Under the pieces are notes generated by a model. It was given only the letters and a program-made list of their open reading frames with translations. It ran no database searches and had not been told where the DNA came from. Positions 30,038 to 41,397 of a stretch of DNA of 64,000 nucleotides are shown in pieces. Position 1 is the first letter of the stretch; the number at the start of each line of letters is the position of its first letter. The stretch is from Chloroflexota bacterium (GTDB lineage Bacteria; Chloroflexota; Anaerolineae; Anaerolineales; VGOW01): positions 1-64,000 of the forward strand of contig JACPWC010000056.1 of the NCBI GenBank assembly GCA_016197225.1, read 5' to 3'. The translations under genes were made by a program, and so were the position numbers.

Positions 30038-31030
30038 TCACACAAGTTCCGCGTGTTTGTTTTCGAGCCATTGGGCGAGGAGAAGTGAGTCAGGGCGGAG
30101 AGTTCCATCGGAGTTACGGTCTAGCCAGCCGCGCCAAATGAGGTCTTCAATGTCGCCCAGCGCAGGCGGGCGCGGAAGAGTTTTGTAGCCAACTGCCGAG
30201 AGAAGCACCGGCGCAAGGTTGCTGAGAGAGCTAAAAGCTAGATCGAAATGCTCGCCAGCGCGATGGGATAAGGCATTGACGATTGATTGGGCATCGGCGG
30301 GGATTGGATGGAGATTCAGGGCCAACGACAACAAATGGGGGTGGCGGCCAACGGCGGCCAAAACTGCGTCTACCAGTGGAGCCTCAACCTGGCTACCCAG
30401 GATTTTACGCGCCTCATCTGTCCCAAACGCACCCAGACGGATTTCCTGCAAAGTATTGAAGTAAGGCGACCCGCGCGGATTCAATTTCGCAGTCTGTTGA
30501 TTCAATTCGGAGACGCGGCGGTGGCTGGCGACGATGAGCGAGAGGCCGCCTGACCGCGAAGAGAGTGACCGCAATGCGCCGAGAAGTTCTCCCGCCGATG
30601 CCGCTGGAGGGGCGAGCAGATGGCTGAGGAAGTGGCCGAAGTGATCCACGAGCAGGACCACCCGCAACCCGGATCGCCCCATCTGGCGAAAGAACCGCTC
30701 CAACGCAAACGCGCCATAATCGCCCATCGCCACAAATTGTTTGGCTTCGACACGAATTGCGGGTGGGGCTTCGACACACAGTTTCCCAAAAACGCTCTGC
30801 CAAAAAGTGGTAGCGATGAAGTAGGCGGGCAGATGTCGCCCGTCGAGGGCGAAGACAGCCAACCGCTCAGGGTGGGGCAGCCATTCGGCGCGGACCTCGG
30901 CGCGGGCGAGTTGGGCCAGCAACAGCGATTTGCCCGTGTCCGGCTCGCCGACAATGGCCGCGCTCTGCCCGGAGGCCAAACGGGAGAAGGCGGCGCGAAG
31001 TTCGGCCTCACGGCCTAACAAAGGAGTCAT
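30038..31030 (-). CDS. P-loop (AAA/STAND-like) ATPase
   Basis: This 330-residue protein has N-terminal LLGREAEL, Walker A GEPDTGKS (about 37-44), Walker B VVLLVDHF (about 127), a sensor-like IVASHRR and a helical C-terminal region ending LIWRGWLDRN, which resembles a winged helix. In Walker B the Asp is followed by His, not Glu, so hydrolysis may be slow or lost. The start overlaps the stop of the 31027 gene by four bases. The three ATPases here share the FxRExEL start and are probably paralogues. The biological role is unknown. Confidence 0.75.
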   Translation of the reverse strand: MTPLLGREAELRAAFSRLASGQSAAIVGEPDTGKSLLLAQLARAEVRAEWLPHPERLAVFALDGRHLPAYFIATTFWQSVFGKLCVEAPPAIRVEAKQFVAMGDYGAFALERFFRQMGRSGLRVVLLVDHFGHFLSHLLAPPAASAGELLGALRSLSSRSGGLSLIVASHRRVSELNQQTAKLNPRGSPYFNTLQEIRLGAFGTDEARKILGSQVEAPLVDAVLAAVGRHPHLLSLALNLHPIPADAQSIVNALSHRAGEHFDLAFSSLSNLAPVLLSAVGYKTLPRPPALGDIEDLIWRGWLDRNSDGTLRPDSLLLAQWLENKHAELV

Positions 31031-32289
31031 TGCAATGCATTCGGCAACAAGGCTTTTTTGGCGAGATCAATGATATTCGTAGGGATGACTTTCCACACTT
31101 TTTGCAGCCATGCGATCTCTTCGTTAGTTATCAGTCCGCCGAGTTTGAACTGCTTATTGTGCAACCATTGGGTGAAAGCCTCTTGCGGCTCGTCGCCGCG
31201 CGTGCCGACGATTTTCTGCTCGACCAGCCAGGCGCGGAAGGCCGCCGAACCCAGGCGATACCCACCATTCCCGTCGGCCTCCAGGGTGCCCCGGCGAACC
31301 ATTTCTTTGACCTCGGTCCCATACCAGAGCAAAGTCTGTTCAGCCTTTTCCAAGTTGAACGTTTGTCTCCCGGCCTGGCCTTGCAAATCGCGCAGGGCAA
31401 AGATGATCAATGCAATCTGGGCTTTGCTGTCCAGATATTTCCACACGTCTTGAAACTGCGACTCGGCGCGATGGATAAAGGCGCCGCGCAGGGCCAGGTA
31501 ACCAGCGGATTGCACACCGCGCTCGACAGCGTCGAACAGCGCGTCGCCTGCGAGTTGCAACAGCAAGGGGTGGTGGCCGGCGAGCAACACGGCTTCATCC
31601 ACGGCCTCCGGCGGCAAATGGTTTTTGAGCCATACCCGAACCGGGACCTCGTCGAAACAGCCGAGTGTCAATTCGTCGAGATAGTTGAACAAGTCGGAGC
31701 CGCGCGTCGCCACTTTGTATTCTTCACCTAGGGTGTTCATTTGGGCAACCGAGAGGCGGCTGGCGGTGATGAGGCACAACCCTTTGCTTTTCATCGTAAT
31801 CGCGCGCAGTGCGCCCAGGAAATCCAGCGTGTGGAAGGCAGGCAGATTGAAGAGATAATCGAACTCGTCTACAAAAGCTACGACACATCCTTCGGCTCGG
31901 CCCACTTTTTGAAAAGCCCGAAACAAGGCTTGTTCATTCACTTCCTTCTTTTTGAGCAACGGCTTGAGCGGCGCAGTGACCTCCGGGTTGTCTTCGATTG
32001 CTTGTACGATCAGTTCGCGCCAGAAGTCGTGGCGGGTTTTGCTCTCACCGAAGAGTTGAAAGTCAATCTCGACCAGCGCGTACTGATCCGCGTTCAAGGT
32101 GTGGTTATCAAAAACGTCCGGGGTAGCGACGTGATGCAAGAGCGACGTTTTGCCTACGTGTGGGTTGCCAACAATAGCCGTGTTGCGCCGTTTGGCAATG
32201 CGCTCAAAGACGGCCTTGATCTCGGCATCCCGGTTGAAGAAATCCGGGCCAAAGGCGGGGGTAAAGGGAAGGAAGGGGTTGGGAGGCAT
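31027..32289 (-). CDS. P-loop (AAA/STAND-like) ATPase with C-terminal helical tail
   Basis: This 420-residue protein has FFNRDAEI, Walker A GNPHVGKTS (about 42-50), Walker B VVAFVDEFD (about 137) and sensor ITASRLS. A winged-helix-like region (about 270-345) and a separate C-terminal stretch (about 375-420, LGGLITNEEIAWLQKVWKV) follow; the last may be a small adaptor domain. ATPases of this kind occur in signalling and conflict systems. It forms a two-gene operon with the 30038 gene. Its upstream gap contains a palindrome (32335-32398). Confidence 0.76.
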   Translation of the reverse strand: MPPNPFLPFTPAFGPDFFNRDAEIKAVFERIAKRRNTAIVGNPHVGKTSLLHHVATPDVFDNHTLNADQYALVEIDFQLFGESKTRHDFWRELIVQAIEDNPEVTAPLKPLLKKKEVNEQALFRAFQKVGRAEGCVVAFVDEFDYLFNLPAFHTLDFLGALRAITMKSKGLCLITASRLSVAQMNTLGEEYKVATRGSDLFNYLDELTLGCFDEVPVRVWLKNHLPPEAVDEAVLLAGHHPLLLQLAGDALFDAVERGVQSAGYLALRGAFIHRAESQFQDVWKYLDSKAQIALIIFALRDLQGQAGRQTFNLEKAEQTLLWYGTEVKEMVRRGTLEADGNGGYRLGSAAFRAWLVEQKIVGTRGDEPQEAFTQWLHNKQFKLGGLITNEEIAWLQKVWKVIPTNIIDLAKKALLPNALQ

Positions 32290-32334
32290 TGAAATAGTAA
32301 CCGTTCAACTCACCATCGCCTGGAAATGAATTTC

Positions 32335-32398
32335 GGGCTACAGAATTGCGCCGAATGAGCATGGTTTTTGGTAGCCCGATTTATCGGGCGCAACTTTG
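32335..32398. repeat. Nested palindrome in the ATPase intergenic gap
   Basis: GGGCTAC (32335-32341) pairs with GTAGCCC (32371-32377), and GCCCGAT-TT-ATCGGGC (32374-32389) is an inner palindrome. GCGCAACTTTGTCGCCC follows. The 199-nt gap (32290-32488) has no other recognisable content. Confidence 0.6.
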
Positions 32399-32488
32399 TC
32401 GCCCAGCGACTTCATCGGCGAGAGAGGCAGGAGTTCGAATCTCAACTAACTGACGCGATAGCTCGCCAGTACGTTAACACCACCATAC

Positions 32489-35173
32489 TTACGATTGTAC
32501 AATCAACCGTATAATCAAAGAGCCAGAGTTGTCGTTGATTTGCCTATCGTTTATTCGCAAGTATATATTGCCGCTTGTGGGTGCTTGAAGAGTCGTTGAG
32601 TTGCCGACGGCAAACATGTGCTCGCCGATCATCCCAATTAGACTACCGTGTAGCGCCGGAAATATGTTGTCTGGATAGTTGAGATCTTGAGTGCATATAC
32701 GTTCATCTGTACATCCTCGCCCATCTATTAGTACAAAGCCATTTAAAGGAGACCATTTACTGGATATATATTGAATAGTAACTGTTTGTCCTGCATTTAC
32801 AAAAACTCCAGTGTCTTGCCAGTCTCTATCCGCATAAACTTCAACAGTAGTGTAAGTCAGTGTTACAGAAATGGGAGGGCTTGTATAGGCAGGCGTCCGA
32901 GTCGGAGACGGTTTAGACGTATCAGTCAGAGTAGGAGTTAGGGAGGTTGGTGTTGGCGGCGTGGGAGTGATATTCGCCGTAATGACATACCACCCATCCA
33001 ATTGCGTTACTGATGTCTGCGTTGGTGTTGGTGGCGTGGGTGTTTCAGTGAGTGACGGCGTATCGCTTGGAGGCGGAACAGTATTAGTGGGCGGAGGCGA
33101 AGTAAAAGCAACGGTCTCGGTGGCAGTGAGGGTGGCCGGTATTCCTCTCGCGCCAAAAACTGCAAGCACTCCAATAAACGCGATCAATAACACAATGCCG
33201 CCAATGATTATTGCTGTTTTTGTCCGGCTTGCCGTCGGCAGTTTAGGCTCGGCGCGCGGTAGTAGCGTTGGCTCAAAGGGCTTGGGTGGCAGTTTGCTCA
33301 GGCGGACCGCCGCCGCCAACTCTTCGGCGGCATTTTCGTAATCCGGATCAATGCTCACAATCTGGCGAAAATACTCGACGGCCTCGGCGGTCCGCCCCTG
33401 TTTGAGCGCACCCATACCTTCGGCATAAGTGACTGCTAATTTGATCGCGGCTTCGACTTTACTGCGCCCATCCGCATCGCCTGCCCTATCAAACGCATCG
33501 AGGGCCTCCGCGTATTGCCTGGCCGCAAACGCCCGCTCCGCTCTCGCTTTCCAATCTGATTTGAACGCCGCTTCTACTTTACTACGCCCTTCCGCATCGC
33601 CTACCTTATCAAACGCATCAAGGGCCTCTTCGTATTGCTTGGCCGCAAATGCCCGCTCCGCCCTCGCTTTCCAAATAAAGAGCCTTTTCTCTTTGGCTGC
33701 CTCATTGCCCGGCATCACCACTATCGCCCGCTCGTAATCTCTCAGGGCTTTATCTTCATCTTCAGCCCGTTCAGCGCGGGCCAGCAGGGCTTTCACCAAA
33801 CTTGCCCGCGACTGAATATCATCCCGCTTGTAAGCTTCCTCGTAGGAACTTACTGCCGCATCGAGCTGGTTCAATTCAAGATAAGCTTCGGCCACACTCA
33901 ACCTGGCCTGCAGGTGTTCAGGGTTGGCTCGGAGCGCCCGCTCAAAGTTATCCACTGCCACTTGCAGGTTGTTTTCATCCAGTTCCAGCTTGCCAACTTC
34001 ATAATAACGTTGCGCGCGCGGGTTGACCCGGTCAAGCTCATCCTGCACTTGACTGAGCGGTTTGCGTTCGCGAATCCAGCGATAAAGAAGAGGCACCAGA
34101 AAGCGATAGCCTTTCCCCGACGCCGGCTGAAGCAGTTGCCACTCCACCAGCTTCTCCGGTGAGGCTTCAAGTTCACGGGTGACGATCCGGATGCGCCGGG
34201 TTTGCAAAGTATCCAGAATTGCTTCGCGGCTGGCGGCGGCGATTTCGTCAGGCAAAAGTTCGGCCATGGCCGAGGTGATAATCCGGTCAGCAGGCGAGAG
34301 GCCATCCCAAATCCAGGCAAAGACGTTATCGCCCACTTGAAAGACCTGGGGAACAATCCCTTCAACATCTTTTTCGTTGATCAAAGGAATTTCGGAATCA
34401 GGTGAGGCGTAGGCATGGTCGAACAGCAACTGGCAAAGGAGTTGGGTAAAGTAAGGGTGGCCGTTGGTCAGGTTGTAGATATGCTCAACTGCGGCGGCAG
34501 TGTAATGAATGCGATTTGAGGGAGCAGTAATGAGTTGTGTCGTTGAGTCTCGGTCAAGCACTGAGATGCGAATGGTCCGCGCCCCTTTGAAGGTGGCGAG
34601 GAAGTCAGTGTTGTCGAGGTCTTTTGGATCGCGCCCCAACGCAAAGGCAAACTCCAACCGCGTCTCTTCACGAATCCAACGGCGCAGGGTCTCAAACAAC
34701 CGGTTGGCGGCGGCGCTTGGCTCAAGGCGTTCGCGCTGAATCACGTCCAGCACATCAAATTCGTCAAAAAGCAAAACCAGATGGTGGTCAGTTGATGGCA
34801 GAGCGGCATAAACTTGAGGCAAAAACTGGCGCTGGAAGTTCGTGCCCGCATCGTCAAAGTCAATGTCGGGTTCATCGAGGCCGAGTTCCAGAGCAATGGA
34901 ACGCGCCAGTTCGCGCATCACCTCGCCCAGCGGTTTAGTGGCCTTATCCATCAAATCCTGATAGACCACCACAAATTGTTTGAGGTCGAGGCGGCGTTGA
35001 AGTTGCAGGAGGACAGACGTTTTGCCAATACGCCGCTGGCCGAAGATGACCACTGCATTCTGGCCGGGCGCGACGATTGCGCGTTCTACTTGCCGTAGAA
35101 CATCCTCGCGGCCAAAGAAACCTTGCTCGCCGGCACTAGGGTTGCCGGCAATATAAGGGTTGAGCGGTGGCAT
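32489..35173 (-). CDS. Membrane-spanning ATPase with TPR repeats and LecA-like sugar-binding domain
   Basis: This 894-residue protein joins five parts. An N-terminal P-loop ATPase has FFGREDVL, Walker A GQRRIGKTS (about 45-53) and Walker B LLFDEFD (about 140). TPR-like repeats follow (about 400-610), including a 40-residue unit present twice (KARAERAFAAKQY and KARAERAFAARQY). Then come a membrane helix (AIIIGGIVLLIAFIGVLAVF, about 640) and a Pro/Thr-rich linker. The exported domain has WQDTGVFVNAGQTVTI, IGMIGEHMFAVG and LRINDRQINDNSG, resembling PA-IL/LecA lectins. This could couple an outside sugar signal to an inside ATPase (inference). The ATG at 35173 lies six bases after a TATAAT. Confidence 0.8.
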   Translation of the reverse strand: MPPLNPYIAGNPSAGEQGFFGREDVLRQVERAIVAPGQNAVVIFGQRRIGKTSVLLQLQRRLDLKQFVVVYQDLMDKATKPLGEVMRELARSIALELGLDEPDIDFDDAGTNFQRQFLPQVYAALPSTDHHLVLLFDEFDVLDVIQRERLEPSAAANRLFETLRRWIREETRLEFAFALGRDPKDLDNTDFLATFKGARTIRISVLDRDSTTQLITAPSNRIHYTAAAVEHIYNLTNGHPYFTQLLCQLLFDHAYASPDSEIPLINEKDVEGIVPQVFQVGDNVFAWIWDGLSPADRIITSAMAELLPDEIAAASREAILDTLQTRRIRIVTRELEASPEKLVEWQLLQPASGKGYRFLVPLLYRWIRERKPLSQVQDELDRVNPRAQRYYEVGKLELDENNLQVAVDNFERALRANPEHLQARLSVAEAYLELNQLDAAVSSYEEAYKRDDIQSRASLVKALLARAERAEDEDKALRDYERAIVVMPGNEAAKEKRLFIWKARAERAFAAKQYEEALDAFDKVGDAEGRSKVEAAFKSDWKARAERAFAARQYAEALDAFDRAGDADGRSKVEAAIKLAVTYAEGMGALKQGRTAEAVEYFRQIVSIDPDYENAAEELAAAVRLSKLPPKPFEPTLLPRAEPKLPTASRTKTAIIIGGIVLLIAFIGVLAVFGARGIPATLTATETVAFTSPPPTNTVPPPSDTPSLTETPTPPTPTQTSVTQLDGWYVITANITPTPPTPTSLTPTLTDTSKPSPTRTPAYTSPPISVTLTYTTVEVYADRDWQDTGVFVNAGQTVTIQYISSKWSPLNGFVLIDGRGCTDERICTQDLNYPDNIFPALHGSLIGMIGEHMFAVGNSTTLQAPTSGNIYLRINDRQINDNSGSLIIRLIVQS
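33430..33669. repeat. Tandem duplication, 2 x 120 bp, inside the 32489 ATPase gene
   Basis: The stretch starting at 33450 recurs at 33570 with only scattered changes. The period of 120 bp equals 40 codons and keeps the frame. It encodes the two KARAERAFAA-type TPR units. Confidence 0.8.
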
Positions 35174-35179
35174 AAGCAA

Positions 35180-35248: not shown

Positions 35249-36427
35249 ATGCTCCTCAACGCCCTGCCCACCTCTCTTTTCAACCCCTTCACCGCTCCCG
35301 GCGCTGACGTTTATGCCAACATTCTCGCCGGCCTCTTTGCCGAAACGCAACGCCGCCCGCAGCCGCTCTCGCGCAACCTCGTCCTTGACATCATTCTCAG
35401 CCACCTGGCTAAGTCAGAAACACTAGCGCGCGCTCAAGACATCCTGAACTACCTCGAGCGCTGTGGCTGGCTTCGGCCCGAAGTCCAAACCGACTTCACT
35501 CGCGCTTACACCCTCCCGGCTCACGCCTTTGAGCTATTGCAGATTCTAAGCAAGACTGCGACCGACGAACCGCCGCCGGTTGAGGGATTGATGGTGGCGA
35601 TTCACGATCTCCTGCAAGCCGCCGCGCGCGGCGAAGGGCGTGAGGCCCGTCTGGCCGAAGCAGGCCGCCTAACCTCACAACTTCAGGCCGAACTCAAGAA
35701 GATTCAACACAACCCGGCCTGGCATCAGCTCAACTTCGAAGCGCTGGCTCAACTTCGGCAGGACATCTTAAACACCACCGCCAAACACGGCGAGGCCGCC
35801 GCCCCGATTGAGGGCGACTTTCAGGCCATTGATCGCCTGTTAAATGAGATCGAGTCCCGCCAGCGCGCGCTGGCCGAGTCGGCCAAAACGGAAGCGCAAC
35901 CCGCCAGCGCCCAACTAATTAGAATTCTGAATTTCCTCTCATCAGACCCTTCGGGTCTAACCGATTCGCTCATCAATCTATATCACTTGGAAGTGTTCGA
36001 CTCCGAGCCGCTCGCTTTTCCTTCTTTTCCCCCATTTCCTTTTATTCCCGACTCTGTTTCCATTCCCTCGCCTTCCACTAGCGCCGCCAAAGCCGCCCAG
36101 CGCGAAACGGCCCGCCAACTCAATCGGCCTGTGAGCCGCGAGCGTGTCAGGCGTTTGGCGCAAAGCATTTTGCGCGACCGATCCGAAATCCGCGCCGCCG
36201 ACATCGTCCTCAGCGGTTCTGCCGACCCTTCGGGACTCCTTTCAGTCGCAGGGCAAACTCTGCCGCTCCTCATTTTCCTGCGCGCTTACGGCGACGGCTC
36301 GCTTGGTTATCACGTCGAAGAACTGGAAGAGTTCACCTGGGTCGAAGCGGGCGGCGTCGGCTTCCGCGACTTTTTAGTAAAAGGAGAAACACCCAATGAG
36401 CCTGAGCCAATTCGCTCAGAATTATGA
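35249..36427 (+). CDS. JetA/MksF-like (kleisin) subunit of a Wadjet/MksBEF-type complex
   Basis: This 392-residue protein begins LPTSLFNPFTAPGADVYANIL and continues with an N-terminal winged-helix-like part (QDILNYLERCGWLRPE). A helical middle (about 110-220) and a C-terminal part with QLNRPVSRERVRRLAQSIL follow. The pattern and position before a DUF4194 gene and an SMC gene match JetA/MukF-type kleisins, which bridge the SMC heads. It is shorter than JetA proteins I know (about 450-500). Two short palindromes are inserted in frame (35944-35958 and 36223-36253, both encoding DPSG). It overlaps jetB by 32 nt. Confidence 0.72.
   Translation: MLLNALPTSLFNPFTAPGADVYANILAGLFAETQRRPQPLSRNLVLDIILSHLAKSETLARAQDILNYLERCGWLRPEVQTDFTRAYTLPAHAFELLQILSKTATDEPPPVEGLMVAIHDLLQAAARGEGREARLAEAGRLTSQLQAELKKIQHNPAWHQLNFEALAQLRQDILNTTAKHGEAAAPIEGDFQAIDRLLNEIESRQRALAESAKTEAQPASAQLIRILNFLSSDPSGLTDSLINLYHLEVFDSEPLAFPSFPPFPFIPDSVSIPSPSTSAAKAAQRETARQLNRPVSRERVRRLAQSILRDRSEIRAADIVLSGSADPSGLLSVAGQTLPLLIFLRAYGDGSLGYHVEELEEFTWVEAGGVGFRDFLVKGETPNEPEPIRSEL
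35944..35958. repeat. In-frame palindrome in jetA (first)
   Basis: AGACCC-TTC-GGGTCT, six-bp arms, three-base loop. Encodes SDPSGL in a region of low conservation. Confidence 0.5.
36223..36253. repeat. In-frame palindrome-like element in jetA (second)
   Basis: GACCCTTCGGGACTCC followed by TTTCAGTCGCAGGGC; CTGCCGACCC faces TCGCAGGG. It shares GACCCTTCGGG with the first element and again encodes DPSGL. Confidence 0.45.
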
Positions 36428-37001
36428 TCTGCTTTCGGCGCTCGACCAGGCAACCTTTGCCGAAGCCATTCAACGGCTGATGGACGAAGGTTTCATCTGG
36501 CAGGAAGAGGAGGCCGACCGGCGCGCCTACAACTTCATCGCCCGGAGGCAGGAGCTGGTGGCCGACTACCTGCGCGTGGGCGGCTGGGAGTTGCGCCACC
36601 ACGAGCAACTCCACGCTTTCCAACTTGTTCACGGTAAAGGCGCGCGCCGCCGCCGGCTCGACCCAAACACAACCTTCTGGCTGTTGTTCTTGCGGCTGAT
36701 GTACGCGGAGAAGAGCGAAAAGAAAGAGGGATTGCTCACTCGCTACCCGGTCGTCACTATTGACGACATTGTGGCGCGCTGGGCCAAGCTCTTTCCCGAT
36801 CGGGGCGAGACTGAATCCGCGAGCCTTTACGACGCCCTGCCGACTCTGCACAGTCTTAAGCTCATCCGGCCAGCCGGCGGCGAGGTTCTGCGAACGGGAA
36901 ATTCGGAGCAACAGATCGAACTCCTGCCCACGCTCGAAATCGTCGTGCCTGCCGAAGAGATCGCCGCCCTGGCCCAGCAACTTGGCGAACGCCAGACTTA
37001 G
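36396..37001 (+). CDS. JetB/MksE-like (DUF4194) subunit
   Basis: This 201-residue protein resembles the MukE/MksE/JetB (DUF4194) family, which binds the kleisin. It has an N-terminal winged helix (QRLMDEGFIWQEE), YNFIARRQELVADYLRVGGWEL (about 48-69), RLDPNTTFWLLFLRLMY (about 89-105) and a second winged helix in the C-terminal half (LYDALPTLHSLKLIR). The ATG is preceded by AAAGGAG eight bases upstream, inside jetA. It sits between the kleisin and SMC genes, as in Wadjet and MksBEF operons. Confidence 0.78.
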   Translation: MSLSQFAQNYDLLSALDQATFAEAIQRLMDEGFIWQEEEADRRAYNFIARRQELVADYLRVGGWELRHHEQLHAFQLVHGKGARRRRLDPNTTFWLLFLRLMYAEKSEKKEGLLTRYPVVTIDDIVARWAKLFPDRGETESASLYDALPTLHSLKLIRPAGGEVLRTGNSEQQIELLPTLEIVVPAEEIAALAQQLGERQT

Positions 37002-37018
37002 GGCGTGCCAGAGAATTC

Positions 37019-37088
37019 ATCCGCAGATTTTCGCCGATTACCACAGATTTGTTCAACTCATCTGCGAAAATCTGCGTAATCTGTGGAT
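37019..37088. repeat. Palindromic repeat, CGCAGAT family, between jetB and jetC
   Basis: ATCCGCAGATT and CCACAGATTTG on the left face CATCTGCG, AATCTGCGTAATCTGTGGAT on the right. Same family as 23-100 and 46234-46309. Confidence 0.7.
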
Positions 37089-37109
37089 GACCAAACCTTA
37101 GAACTACTC

Positions 37110-37967
37110 ATGCTCTCTCTTACCCGCCTCTTCCTCCACAACTGGCTCCGCTTCAATGCTCAAGTGATTGAGGTTGACGAGAGCTTCTACCTGGCCGGGC
37201 AAGACCAGGACGGACTCGCGGCGCTGGATGCGATCCAACTGGCGCTGGTGGCCGACCCGGCCCGGCTACGGTTTGGCCGCCACCCGCGTGGCGGCTTCAC
37301 CTACGACGTTGACGCCTACGCCCGTGGCCGCCTCAACGAGAGTCAATGGCTCAGGCCAGGCAACACCGTCTCTTACGCCGTGCTCGAGTTCGCCGACAAA
37401 CGCGCCGGCGGCGCGTTCACGCTCGGCGTTTGCGTCGAGGCCGGAAGCCACCGGCCGGTGGAGCAAACTTTTTTCATCCTGCCCGAAGCCCTCAACCCCG
37501 GCGTCTTCGTCACCACCGGGCGGCCCCTGCCGCGCATCGAACTACGCGCCCTGCTCCGCAACCGGCGCGGCGCAAAATCCTTTGAGCACGCTACGGATTA
37601 CCAGGCCGAACTGCTCAACCAGTTGGGCGGCCTCGACGAGGACTTCTTCCAACTTTTTCCGCGCGCCCTGCGCTTTGAGCCAATTCACAACATTGACGAG
37701 TTCGTGAACGCCTGGGTGCTGGCCGAGCACCCACTCGACCTCACGCCACTGCGCCGCGCCCGCGAGCGGCTGGGGCCTCTGCAAGCCGAAGTTGAGCGCA
37801 TTGAAAAACGAATCGCCGGACTGCAAAACGTGCTTGAGCACCAGGCCGAAGCCCGCCGCCTGACTGACCAGCGCGACCAGCACACCCTGCTGGCCGCCCT
37901 GCTCCGCGCGAGCGCCGCCGCCAAACAAGCAGAGTCGATTCAAGAGCAAATTGCTCAAACGCAATAA
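37110..37967 (+). CDS. JetC/MksB-like SMC protein, N-terminal fragment with degenerate Walker A
   Basis: This 285-residue fragment is the N-terminal head and first coiled coil of a MukB/JetC-type SMC. The start MLSLTRLFLHNWLRF and the stretch ALDAIQLALVADPARLRFG align with the head of JetC proteins. Where a P-loop GxNGSGKST should stand, the sequence reads GQDQDGLAA (37197-37223): the catalytic Lys is Leu (CTC at 37215-37217) and Ser is Ala. The coiled coil (about 230-285) then ends at TAA 37965-37967. The same frame continues open to 40307, so this is one gene split by one stop. The ATG at 37110 was chosen over a GTG at 37083 that lies in a repeat. Confidence 0.75.
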   Translation: MLSLTRLFLHNWLRFNAQVIEVDESFYLAGQDQDGLAALDAIQLALVADPARLRFGRHPRGGFTYDVDAYARGRLNESQWLRPGNTVSYAVLEFADKRAGGAFTLGVCVEAGSHRPVEQTFFILPEALNPGVFVTTGRPLPRIELRALLRNRRGAKSFEHATDYQAELLNQLGGLDEDFFQLFPRALRFEPIHNIDEFVNAWVLAEHPLDLTPLRRARERLGPLQAEVERIEKRIAGLQNVLEHQAEARRLTDQRDQHTLLAALLRASAAAKQAESIQEQIAQTQ

Positions 37968-37995
37968 CAAATCAAAATAACCAATAACCAATATA
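37963..37995. repeat. Low-complexity insertion carrying the jetC in-frame stop
   Basis: Words AATAAC, AAATAACC and AATAACC follow one another. The first supplies TAA at 37965-37967. AT-rich, unlike the GC-rich coding sequence on both sides. The reading frame is the same before and after. Confidence 0.6.
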
Positions 37996-38153
37996 CGGCT
38001 TCGCAAACTACCATCGCCAACCTCGAATCCAAACTGCGCGAAGTTGAGCGCCTGCTCTTCGAGGCCGGTCAGGCGCGGCGGCGCTCGGAACTGCAACTGG
38101 GACTGGCCGCCGCCTCGCGTGAGGCCGACGACCTTCGCGCCCGCTGGGGGGCA

Positions 38154-40307
38154 TTGCGCCGCGACCTGACGAAGACGGCTGACTCATTGCGCTCTCTGCT
38201 CGGCAAGCTGGATGACGACGCTGCGCTCCGGGCCTGGGGCGACGGTGTGGCCGCCTCTGCTCCCGAACGTCCGCCGGCCCCGGCCCTTTCGGCGGCGACG
38301 GAAGAGGCCGCCACCCAACTGGAGACGGCTTCCACCAAACTCGTCGAACAAAGAGCCAAACTCGTCGAACAGATCAGCGCCCTGCGTTCCAGAGTCGAGT
38401 CGCTCAATCAGGAACTAACCGGCCTGCGGGAGCGCGATCAGATTCCATATCCGCCTTACGTCCTCAAACTGCAAGAGATCGTCGCGCCCATCATTGGCCG
38501 CAGGCCGCCGCTGTTGTGTGAACTATTGGAGATTCCGGATGCGAAGTGGCAGAACGTGGTGGAGGCGGCGCTGGGGCCGCGCCGCTTTGGGGCCATCGTC
38601 TCGCTCACCTGGCTCGAAGACGCCCAGCGCGCCCTGAACAAGGCTGGGCTGACCGAGGCCGGCCTGCTGGACTTTGCCAGCGCCGACAAAGACGCCCGCC
38701 CGGCCCAGCCCGGCTCGCTGGCCGAGCAGGTGATGACCGAGTATCCCGACTTGCGCGACTACGTCAACGCCATGCTGGGCGACATCATCACCTGTGACGC
38801 GGTTGAGAAACTGCGCGATCATCGCCGGGCGATCACACCCGAGGTGAAGTTTTACAGCGACTGGCTGATTCGCGACTGGTCGCCTGAGCAGTATCAACCC
38901 TGGTTTATCGGCAGTCGCGCCAAAGGTTCGCACATTGAGTTGCGCGAGAGCGAGTTGAAAGAGGCAAACGGCAAACTGAGTGAACTCGAAAAGCGGTTGG
39001 CCGAAACCGAAGCACGGCTGGCGGCGCTCGAACATCGCCGTGAACTTCCGGCGCTGAGGGCGCGGTTGAGCGCGCCACTGGACGAGCGCCCGGCCCGCGA
39101 GCAGGCGGACGCTTTGCAGGCCGAACTGCGAACACTCGACCTGACTCCGGTGGCCGAGTTTGAGAAGAAAGCCAGAGGCTTGCGGGACGACCTGGCTCGC
39201 GAGAGCAAGACTCGCGATGAGATCAGCCACAAGCTGGCCCTGGAGGAACTTGAACTAAGAGCGCAGCAGGCCGACCTGGAAGCCGCCCGACAAGACCACG
39301 CCGAACTTGAGGGGCAGGCCGCCGCCGCTCGCGCCCAACTCGCAGAAGTTGTCACTGCCGCCGAGGAGGCCCTGCCCCAGTTTCTCAAGCTTGAGCCGAA
39401 CGAGGCCGTCCGCAACGCCCTGCAAAAAGAACGGGAGTTTGAAACGAAGGCAAAGGACGCCCGCCAGCGCCTGACCGAGGCGGCCACGATTTATAACCTC
39501 ACCTTCCAGTTTGTGGCCCGACCCAACGACCCCGCCGAGGCTCGCTACGCTGAAGAGCATCAGCGACTCACGGCCAGCGACTTGCCGCGCTACCAGGCCC
39601 AGATTGACAGCACCGAGCGCGACATCGAAGAAGAATTGCGCGATCACGTTCTGCGCGGACTGCGCCAGCATTTTGCCCAGGCGGATCAGGTCCTAACGCA
39701 GATCAACGACGCCCTGGCCGAACTGGCACGCGACGGCCAGACTTACCGCTTTACCTGCGAACCCGCGCCTGAGTTCAAAGCGTTTTACGACCTGGTGACC
39801 GGTTCGGAACAGGTTGAAGGCTCGTTGTTCGAGAGCCGGTTCTATCTTGATCACAAAGTTGCGTTCGACAAGTTCCACGAGACCCTCACCTCTCAACCCG
39901 ACTCCGGCCTGGCCGATTATCGCCGCTACCTGCGCTATCACGTCGAAGCCAAGAGCGGGAAGGGCAAAGCACAACGGCTGGAGGCAACCGCCGACGGCGG
40001 AACCGAGATCGTCTTTTATCTGGCGCTGGCCGCGTCCTTCACCCGGCTGTATCGCCTCTCGGCGCGTGAGGGCCGCCCCATCATCCGGCTGGCGGCTTTT
40101 GGCGAGGCCTTTGCCAGGATGGACGTTGAACACGTCGGCCCGGTGCTGGAACTCTTCAGGCAATGCAAATTGCAAACGGCGGTTGCCACGCCACTGGAGC
40201 GATGCGAGTATCTTGTGCCGCACACGCCCACCAACGTCGTGCTCACGCCCGTCGGCAGTGCAGTGCTGATCGAGCCGTACCGAAATTACGAAGCGCCTCA
40301 ATTGTAG
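38154..40307 (+). CDS. JetC/MksB-like SMC protein, C-terminal fragment with degenerate Walker B
   Basis: This is the remainder of the SMC: coiled coil, hinge-like middle (PYPPYVLKLQEIVAPIIG), second coiled coil and C-terminal head. The head keeps the family frame (YRRYLRYHVEAKSG, ATPLERCEYLVPH), but the ABC signature reads ADGGTE (39990-40007) instead of SGGE. Walker B reads AAFGEAF with Gly (GGC 40101-40103) in place of Asp. With the Walker A loss this is a pseudo-ATPase. The frame is open from 37968; the only early start is TTG 38154 (next GTG 38247), with no clear Shine-Dalgarno sequence. Expression may need restart or readthrough, or the gene is decaying. The stop is supplied by the palindrome at 40304. 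No jetD follows. Confidence 0.7.
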   Translation: MRRDLTKTADSLRSLLGKLDDDAALRAWGDGVAASAPERPPAPALSAATEEAATQLETASTKLVEQRAKLVEQISALRSRVESLNQELTGLRERDQIPYPPYVLKLQEIVAPIIGRRPPLLCELLEIPDAKWQNVVEAALGPRRFGAIVSLTWLEDAQRALNKAGLTEAGLLDFASADKDARPAQPGSLAEQVMTEYPDLRDYVNAMLGDIITCDAVEKLRDHRRAITPEVKFYSDWLIRDWSPEQYQPWFIGSRAKGSHIELRESELKEANGKLSELEKRLAETEARLAALEHRRELPALRARLSAPLDERPAREQADALQAELRTLDLTPVAEFEKKARGLRDDLARESKTRDEISHKLALEELELRAQQADLEAARQDHAELEGQAAAARAQLAEVVTAAEEALPQFLKLEPNEAVRNALQKEREFETKAKDARQRLTEAATIYNLTFQFVARPNDPAEARYAEEHQRLTASDLPRYQAQIDSTERDIEEELRDHVLRGLRQHFAQADQVLTQINDALAELARDGQTYRFTCEPAPEFKAFYDLVTGSEQVEGSLFESRFYLDHKVAFDKFHETLTSQPDSGLADYRRYLRYHVEAKSGKGKAQRLEATADGGTEIVFYLALAASFTRLYRLSAREGRPIIRLAAFGEAFARMDVEHVGPVLELFRQCKLQTAVATPLERCEYLVPHTPTNVVLTPVGSAVLIEPYRNYEAPQL

Positions 40308-40377: not shown

Positions 40378-41397
40378 GTGCCTTCTCCCATTACTTCTTC
40401 GGCGTGGGACGCCTTCGTCGAATCGCATCCACACGGTCACATATTACAAACCTCAGCCTGGGCCGAACTCAAATGCGCCTTTGGCTGGTCGGCGGCGCGG
40501 GTAGACGTGCGCGAGAACGGCCAGCTTGTGGCCGGGGCGCAAATTCTGTTTCGGCCACTGCCCCTCGGCTTGGCCACCATCGCCTACATTCCCAAAGGCC
40601 CGCTGGTGGACTGGCGCAACCCTTCGCTGGTCAATTATCTGTTTGAATCAATTGACAACGTGGCCCGATCCGGACGGGCGATCTTTTTGAAGATCGAGCC
40701 GGACGACGCGCCGGTCAACCGTCTCGACGAGTTGGGCTTTCAACCCAGCCCGCACCTGATCCAGCCGCGCCGCACGCTCGTAGTGGATTTGCGGCCCGAC
40801 GAAGACGCGATCCTGGCGACCATGAAACAGAAGACGCGCTACAACATCCGGCTGGCGGCCAAAAAGGAAGTGGCCGTCTCCACCTCCGACGATGTTGAAG
40901 CCTTCATTCGGTTGATGCAGGTGACGGGCGAGCGCGACAAGTTCGGCGTGCATTCGGGCGACTACTATCGCAAGGCCTACGAGCTGTTTCACCCCTCGGG
41001 CCGCGCCCAGCTTTTTCTGGCCTCGTTCAACAGCCAGCCGCTGGCCGGGCTGATGCTGTTCGTCCTCGGCGGGCGGGCGTGGTATTTCTACGGTTGCTCA
41101 TCGGACGCCGAGCGCAACCGCATGCCGGCCTATCTTTTGCAGTGGGAAGCCATGCACTGGGCCAGGGTGCGCGGCGCAACCAGTTACGACCTGTGGGGCG
41201 TGCCGGACGAAGACGAAGGGACGCTCGAAGCCAATTTCGAGACTCGCCACGACGGGCTGTGGGGTGTCTATCGTTTCAAGCGCGGTTTTGGCGGCCAGCT
41301 CGCGCGCGCGCCGGGGGCGTTCGACAAAGTCTACTCACCGTTTTGGTATCGGCTGTATTTGGCGTATTTGAAACAGAAAAAGGGAAGTGAGGCGTAA
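40378..41397 (+). CDS. FemAB/FemX-family aminoacyltransferase (peptidoglycan bridge)
   Basis: This 339-residue GNAT-fold protein belongs to the family that adds amino acids to lipid II to build interpeptide bridges. Family elements are HILQTSAWAELKCAFGW, GLATIAYIPKGPLVDW, MKQKTRYNIRLAAKK (about 149-163), YYRKAYELF, LLQWEAMHWARVRGATSYDLWG and FKRGFGG near the end. It starts with GTG six bases after a TATAAT, so it is probably leaderless. The amino acid added is unknown; a bridge implies Lys or ornithine at stem position three in many such bacteria. Confidence 0.88.
   Translation: MPSPITSSAWDAFVESHPHGHILQTSAWAELKCAFGWSAARVDVRENGQLVAGAQILFRPLPLGLATIAYIPKGPLVDWRNPSLVNYLFESIDNVARSGRAIFLKIEPDDAPVNRLDELGFQPSPHLIQPRRTLVVDLRPDEDAILATMKQKTRYNIRLAAKKEVAVSTSDDVEAFIRLMQVTGERDKFGVHSGDYYRKAYELFHPSGRAQLFLASFNSQPLAGLMLFVLGGRAWYFYGCSSDAERNRMPAYLLQWEAMHWARVRGATSYDLWGVPDEDEGTLEANFETRHDGLWGVYRFKRGFGGQLARAPGAFDKVYSPFWYRLYLAYLKQKKGSEA

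What the first reader, a model, noticed from the sequence alone, without database searches (positions are those of the whole stretch)
35249..40307. JetABC/MksBEF-like operon whose SMC subunit has lost all three ATPase motifs
Seen in the sequence: the SMC-like protein has GQDQDGLAA where GxNGSGKST should be (Lys to Leu at 37215-37217), ADGGTE where SGGE should be (39990-40007), and AAFGEAF where the FDEAF-type Walker B should be (Asp to Gly at 40101-40103). The surrounding family residues are kept. The kleisin-like and DUF4194-like genes are intact, and no JetD/MksG nuclease gene follows. Known: Wadjet and MksBEF need ATP hydrolysis by the SMC to extrude DNA loops. Inference: this is either a non-extruding pseudo-SMC complex, possibly driven by the neighbouring ATPases, or a decaying defence or condensin locus.
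Basis: partly seen in the sequence, partly recalled or inferred. Interest (0 to 1): 0.75.

Follow-up and report, generated by a model that had tools for sequence, protein, structure and literature searches.

The report
ATPase-dead, nuclease-less Wadjet (JetABC) operon
Two related bacteria share a remodelled version of the Wadjet anti-plasmid machine that has lost its ATP-burning motor sites, its DNA-cutting subunit and part of its ring-closing arm, yet kept its remaining parts under selection, although the copy in this window has since been interrupted by a stop codon.

Summary
The motif losses are real: Walker A GQDQDGLAA, signature ADGGTE and Walker B AAFGEAF, at the stated coordinates. The operon derives from type I Wadjet (JetA, JetB, JetC hits), with no jetD. 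A congeneric genome (G004) carries an unbroken 1076-aa orthologue, 46% identical, with the same three motifs dead, the same missing segment of JetA and no JetD anywhere in its genome. All 16 sister-family loci and 16 further full-length JetCs have intact motifs, and every sister locus has JetD. On a tree without motif columns the two dead proteins form one clade (support 100) nested among intact ones. They share nine identical changes at otherwise invariant sites, including the Walker A Ser, the signature Ser/Gly and the Walker B Asp, so ATPase loss predates their split. After the split dN/dS is 0.38 (0.32-0.45), and G004 has no stops where neutral drift predicts about 16. This is a pseudo-SMC complex kept under weakened but real selection, most likely as an ATP-independent DNA-binding or DNA-bridging scaffold. 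The function is inferred. The window copy is probably now truncated. Neighbouring ATPases as drivers are not supported.

The parts
35249..36427 (+). jetA-like kleisin gene (392 aa): N- and C-terminal regions kept, central conserved block deleted
   Evidence: PF18982 JetA 1e-24; PADLOC JetA1 4.5e-23; alignment with 13 sister JetA proteins
35711..35716 (+). site in jetA (codons 155-156, ..QHN|PAW..) where the conserved NIGxHI...DHxSRxRP block of the sister JetA proteins is missing; the same block is missing in G004
   Evidence: 29 of 94 invariant JetA columns lost in both, 11 of them gaps in both
36396..37001 (+). jetB-like KITE gene (201 aa), conserved residues almost all kept
   Evidence: DUF4194 5.8e-22; JetB1 4.6e-38; 3 of 49 invariant columns lost in both
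37083..40307 (+). jetC-like SMC gene (start GTG 37083 or, more likely, ATG 37110); ATPase motifs dead; broken by one in-frame TAA
   Evidence: JetC1 model PDLC00519 3.3e-56 and 7.5e-127 for the two parts
37197..37223 (+). degenerate Walker A, GQDQDGLAA (sisters GHNGSGKSS)
37965..37967 (+). in-frame TAA, in an AT-rich patch carrying a dispersed genomic repeat
39990..40007 (+). degenerate ABC signature, ADGGTE (sisters TSGGET), with a 4-5 residue deletion just before it shared with G004
40092..40112 (+). degenerate Walker B, AAFGEAF (sisters VAFDEAF)

Best explanation
The operon is a derivative of a type I Wadjet system that, in a common ancestor of two congeneric species, lost ATP binding and hydrolysis by its SMC subunit (JetC), the JetD nuclease, and a conserved central block of its kleisin (JetA). 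[Shown by sequence.] It was then kept under purifying selection, weaker than on working Wadjet JetC. [Shown for the JetA, JetB and JetC pairs.] Both ends of the kleisin, the KITE subunit, the SMC hinge and the coiled coils are retained, so a JetABC particle probably still assembles, but it cannot run an ATP cycle, extrude loops or cut DNA. [Inferred.] It most likely acts as a static DNA-binding or DNA-bridging scaffold, a nucleoid-type role. [Inferred, weak.] The copy in the window has since acquired a nonsense codon and is probably a truncated or newly dead allele. [The stop is shown; its consequence is inferred.]
For: Congeneric orthologue with the same three dead motifs and an open 1076-codon frame. 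Sixteen sister loci and 16 further full-length JetCs are intact. JetD lies in all 16 sister loci and in neither dead locus; G004 has no JetD_C anywhere. The dead pair form one clade (support 100) nested with intact G453 and G388 (96) on a tree without motif columns. Nine identical derived changes at sites invariant in 25 intact proteins, including Walker A Ser, signature Ser and Gly and Walker B Asp. Changes concentrate in catalytic residues: 12 of 13 against 30 of 107 altered in at least one protein, Fisher p = 1e-5. Post-split dN/dS 0.38 [0.32-0.45] for JetC, 0.46 for JetA, 0.32 for JetB, with dS similar to FemAB of the same species pair. No stop in G004 JetC against about 16 expected under neutrality (minimum 5 in 200 simulations). 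Identity of the dead pair equals or exceeds that of sister pairs in the coiled coils but is 0.61-0.74 of it at the ATP sites.
Against: Only two members are known, and one of them is broken. dN/dS is about three times that of working JetC in the same genus (0.11-0.13), so selection is relaxed. The loci are not syntenic.
Confidence: 0.55

Rival explanations
1. Plain decay: a Wadjet operon that lost JetD and its ATPase in the ancestor and is eroding without function; G004 simply has not yet picked up a stop.
For: TAA in the window copy; dN/dS about three times that of working JetC; flattened conservation profile, with the largest loss at the ATP sites; absent from G002, which is 92% complete.
Against: dN/dS below 1 in all three genes after the split; three open frames in G004 at near-saturated dS where neutral evolution gives about 16, 6 and 3 stops; identity still varies by domain after the split.
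Confidence: 0.27
2. Negative regulator or decoy of active Wadjet: the dead JetABC joins an active JetABC (the genome's own or a rival's) and blocks it.
For: The window genome also has an intact jetABCD on another contig.
Against: G004 (97% complete) has the dead operon but no other JetC and no JetD; the dead JetC of G004 is only 29% identical to the window genome's canonical JetC.
Confidence: 0.08
3. The window's jetC works as two polypeptides (split SMC), or the TAA is read through.
For: Constraint is similar before and after the TAA (dN/dS 0.32 and 0.40); the frame continues exactly, with one stop only.
Against: The first start after the stop is TTG 38154, 62 codons into the second part; TAA ends many genes of the window; the patch is a repeat-derived AT-rich segment. 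A recent stop explains the same pattern.
Confidence: 0.07
4. The TAA is an assembly or base-call error and the window gene is in fact full length (a variant of the best explanation, not exclusive with it).
For: Draft genome in 126 contigs; a single stop in 1065 codons.
Against: The surrounding patch is itself unlike the rest of the gene and matches a dispersed repeat of the genome. The three motif losses do not depend on it, because G004 shares them.
Confidence: 0.2

Closest known systems
Type I Wadjet (JetABCD / MksBEFG / EptABCD)
   Same: Gene order jetA-jetB-jetC, JetA (PF18982), DUF4194 JetB, JetC of the PADLOC JetC1 type; family profile aligns over the whole length with solved JetC chains 8as8/8bfn/8q72
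   Different: All three ATPase motifs lost, no JetD, conserved central JetA block deleted; known Wadjet cleavage requires ATP and a working JetC ATPase (PMC10586767)
MksBEF condensin of Pseudomonas aeruginosa
   Different: MksBEF is an ATP-driven condensin (own knowledge); this one cannot bind or hydrolyse ATP by known rules
Lamassu LmuB (Vibrio DdmABC)
   Same: An SMC-like defence protein with a natural catalytic substitution (Walker B Glu to Gln) that suggests low or no hydrolysis (PMC10586767)
   Different: Only one hydrolysis residue is altered there; here ATP binding, Mg coordination and the signature are all gone, and there is no effector
Coalescin ClsN / archaeal ASRPs
   Same: Lineage-specific SMC-related protein with a chromosome-organising role
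   Different: ASRPs keep Walker A and Walker B and have a zinc hook (PMC9389158)

Membership tests
Type I Wadjet (JetABCD) | JetA kleisin, JetB KITE and JetC SMC encoded in order in one operon | tested here: met
Type I Wadjet (JetABCD) | JetC with Walker A, signature and Walker B motifs | tested here: not met
   32 of 32 other full-length JetCs meet it
Type I Wadjet (JetABCD) | JetD nuclease in the operon | tested here: not met
   no JetD in the G004 genome, and the only JetD in the window genome belongs to the other Wadjet
Type I Wadjet (JetABCD) | Complete kleisin, including the conserved central region | tested here: not met
Type I Wadjet (JetABCD) | Descent from the JetC1 family | tested here: met
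   nested inside the intact sister family; PDLC00519 7.5e-127
Type I Wadjet (JetABCD) | Plasmid restriction activity | not testable with these tools
   needs an experiment
MksBEF-type condensin | ATP-driven SMC, kleisin and KITE without nuclease | tested here: not met
   ATPase motifs lost, although the nuclease-less gene set matches
Maintained pseudoenzyme (as against pseudogene) | Catalytic residues lost, fold residues kept, purifying selection after the loss | tested here: met
   met for the pair and for G004, while the window copy now carries a stop

The most novel reading that the evidence does not exclude
An SMC-kleisin-KITE complex that has lost ATP binding, hydrolysis and its effector nuclease but has been kept by selection as an ATP-independent DNA-organising scaffold: a pseudo-SMC complex born from an anti-plasmid system.
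Probability: 0.4. Interest if true: 0.8.

Novelty: new variant of a known kind. Interest (0 to 1): 0.6.

Why it matters
SMC complexes are understood as ATP-driven motors. A lineage that discarded every ATPase motif and the effector, yet kept the SMC, kleisin and KITE genes, asks directly what an SMC ring can do without ATP. It also gives a natural separation-of-function series (intact sister Wadjets against the dead pair) for the roles of the heads, the kleisin's central region and JetD. I found no description of such a complex in the papers searched.

Tried and rejected
Chance or misalignment of the motifs: rejected, since two divergent proteins share the losses and 32 full-length relatives do not. 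Neighbouring ATPases as motor: rejected for lack of a conserved neighbourhood. Heterodimer with the intact JetC of the same genome: disfavoured because G004 has none. Reassigned TAA: rejected, since TAA ends six other genes checked. JetB IFDR-type JetD contact as a marker of JetD loss: the sister JetBs show no such motif in the alignment, so it is not usable here. Plasmid collection: only distant matches. One scan of genome contigs found a single short distant match. Solved-structure search with the single dead protein and with the JetA profile found nothing; the family JetC profile found 8as8 and others.

Full report
OBSERVATION. The three degenerate motifs are present at the stated positions. 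TAA terminates several ordinary genes of the window (nuoJ, nuoH, nuoA, femAB and others), so it is a stop. The patch around it (37960-38019) has 38% GC against about 63% around it and contains ATAACCAATAACCAA, which occurs 27 times in the genome against 9 for the reversed control. The stop therefore seems to have come with repeat-like DNA and is not obviously a base-call error, but I could not see reads.

IDENTITY. Pfam and PADLOC place the three genes as JetA (PF18982, 1e-24), JetB/DUF4194 (5.8e-22; JetB1 4.6e-38) and JetC1 (PDLC00519, 3.3e-56 and 7.5e-127 for the two parts). A family profile built with relatives aligns over its whole length with solved JetC chains 8as8/8bfn/8q72. No JetD follows. 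The same genome has a second operon, jetABCD, with intact GVNGVGKST, SGGET and FDEAF motifs on another contig.

RELATIVES. Searches of the genus and family, and samples of the order, class and phylum, fall into two score groups: canonical JetC (about 27-29% identity) and a closer sister family (32-41%). Besides the window protein, one congeneric genome, G004, has an orthologue with 46% identity, unbroken over 1076 codons, with LTGPDDSDSAAVLDA, HADDEAQIAFY and LAPFGLAFAQME at the three motifs. All 16 sister-family loci and 16 further full-length JetCs keep the three motifs. All 16 sister loci encode JetD; neither dead locus does. G004 (97% complete) has no JetD_C domain anywhere, and the window genome's only one belongs to its other Wadjet.

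SHARED REMODELLING. JetA of both dead operons lacks a central block that is nearly invariant in sisters (NIGxHI..VL......F..Y...D..Y..L.T.DH.SR.RP) and keeps the N- and C-terminal regions, including LPLL..LR.(Y/H)GDGSLGY...GxGFRDF; 29 of 94 invariant JetA columns are lost in both. JetB is almost untouched (3 of 49 lost). In JetC, of 120 columns invariant in 25 intact proteins, 12 of 13 catalytic columns but only 30 of 107 others are altered in at least one dead protein (Fisher p = 1e-5). Nine are altered to the same state in both, including the Walker A Ser, the signature Ser and Gly and the Walker B Asp. On a tree built without the motif columns the two are one clade (support 100) nested with intact G453 and G388 (96). 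Hence ATPase loss, JetD loss and the JetA deletion most simply happened once, before the two species split.

SELECTION AFTER THE LOSS. Differences between the two dead copies therefore arose after the loss. Counting by Nei-Gojobori gives dN/dS 0.38 (bootstrap 0.32-0.45) for JetC, 0.46 for JetA and 0.32 for JetB. dS is about 1.2-1.5, near saturation and similar to FemAB of the same genomes (1.43), which fits vertical descent. Working JetC in the genus has 0.11-0.13, so constraint is real but relaxed. A neutral simulation to a similar divergence gives about 16 stops per lineage in JetC (range 5-30) against 0 in G004 and 1 in the window. The dead pair is as conserved as sister pairs in the coiled coils (ratio 1.16), close in the rest of the N-terminal head (0.93) and the hinge (0.85), and clearly less at the ATP sites (0.74 and 0.61) and in the short C-terminal tail (0.65). 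Constraint before and after the TAA is similar (0.32 and 0.40, overlapping intervals), so the stop is recent, or an error.

HOW IT MAY WORK. Wadjet cleavage needs ATP and a working JetC ATPase, and JetD is the nuclease (PMC10586767). Without the Walker A Lys/Ser, the Walker B Asp and the signature, no known SMC cycle is possible. By comparison with MukBEF-type complexes (own knowledge) the kleisin's C-terminal winged helix binds the SMC cap and its N-terminal part dimerises; both are kept. The deleted block lies where the helical region that contacts the SMC neck would be expected (inference, no structure match). The simplest model is a JetABC particle frozen in one state that binds or bridges DNA. 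Regulation of active Wadjet is unlikely because G004 has no other JetC or JetD. The neighbouring ATPases (30038-35179) are not next to the G004 copy, so they are unlikely drivers. Slow decay of a useless locus is the main rival.

KNOWN OR NEW. MksBEF of P. aeruginosa is a precedent for a JetABC-type complex without the nuclease, and LmuB for one with impaired hydrolysis (PMC10586767); ClsN and its relatives keep their Walker motifs (PMC9389158). No paper found describes an SMC-kleisin-KITE set with all motifs lost. Filed as a new variant derived from Wadjet, not as a member of functional Wadjet, since three defining features were tested and not met.

Noticed in passing
37960-38019: AT-rich patch inside jetC carrying a dispersed genomic repeat (ATAACCAATAACCAA, 27 genome copies) that brings the stop codon; G004's jetA, jetB and jetC also hold repeat-like in-frame segments (for example SQIGNQQSAIGNQQSALND), suggesting small repeats invade coding DNA in this genus.
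   Followed up: partly
L012 2784-9803 (G000 contig C66): A complete, intact canonical Wadjet jetABCD in the same genome.
   Followed up: partly
30038-32289 (-) and 32489-35179 (-): Two nSTAND/AAA-like ATPase genes in tandem and a third AAA+TPR protein with a likely transmembrane segment and C-terminal domain; not next to the dead operon in G004.
   Followed up: no
40378-41397: FemAB-type gene: in the four congeners it lies in tandem with a second FemAB, in the window genome the two are on different contigs, so this place has been rearranged.
   Followed up: partly
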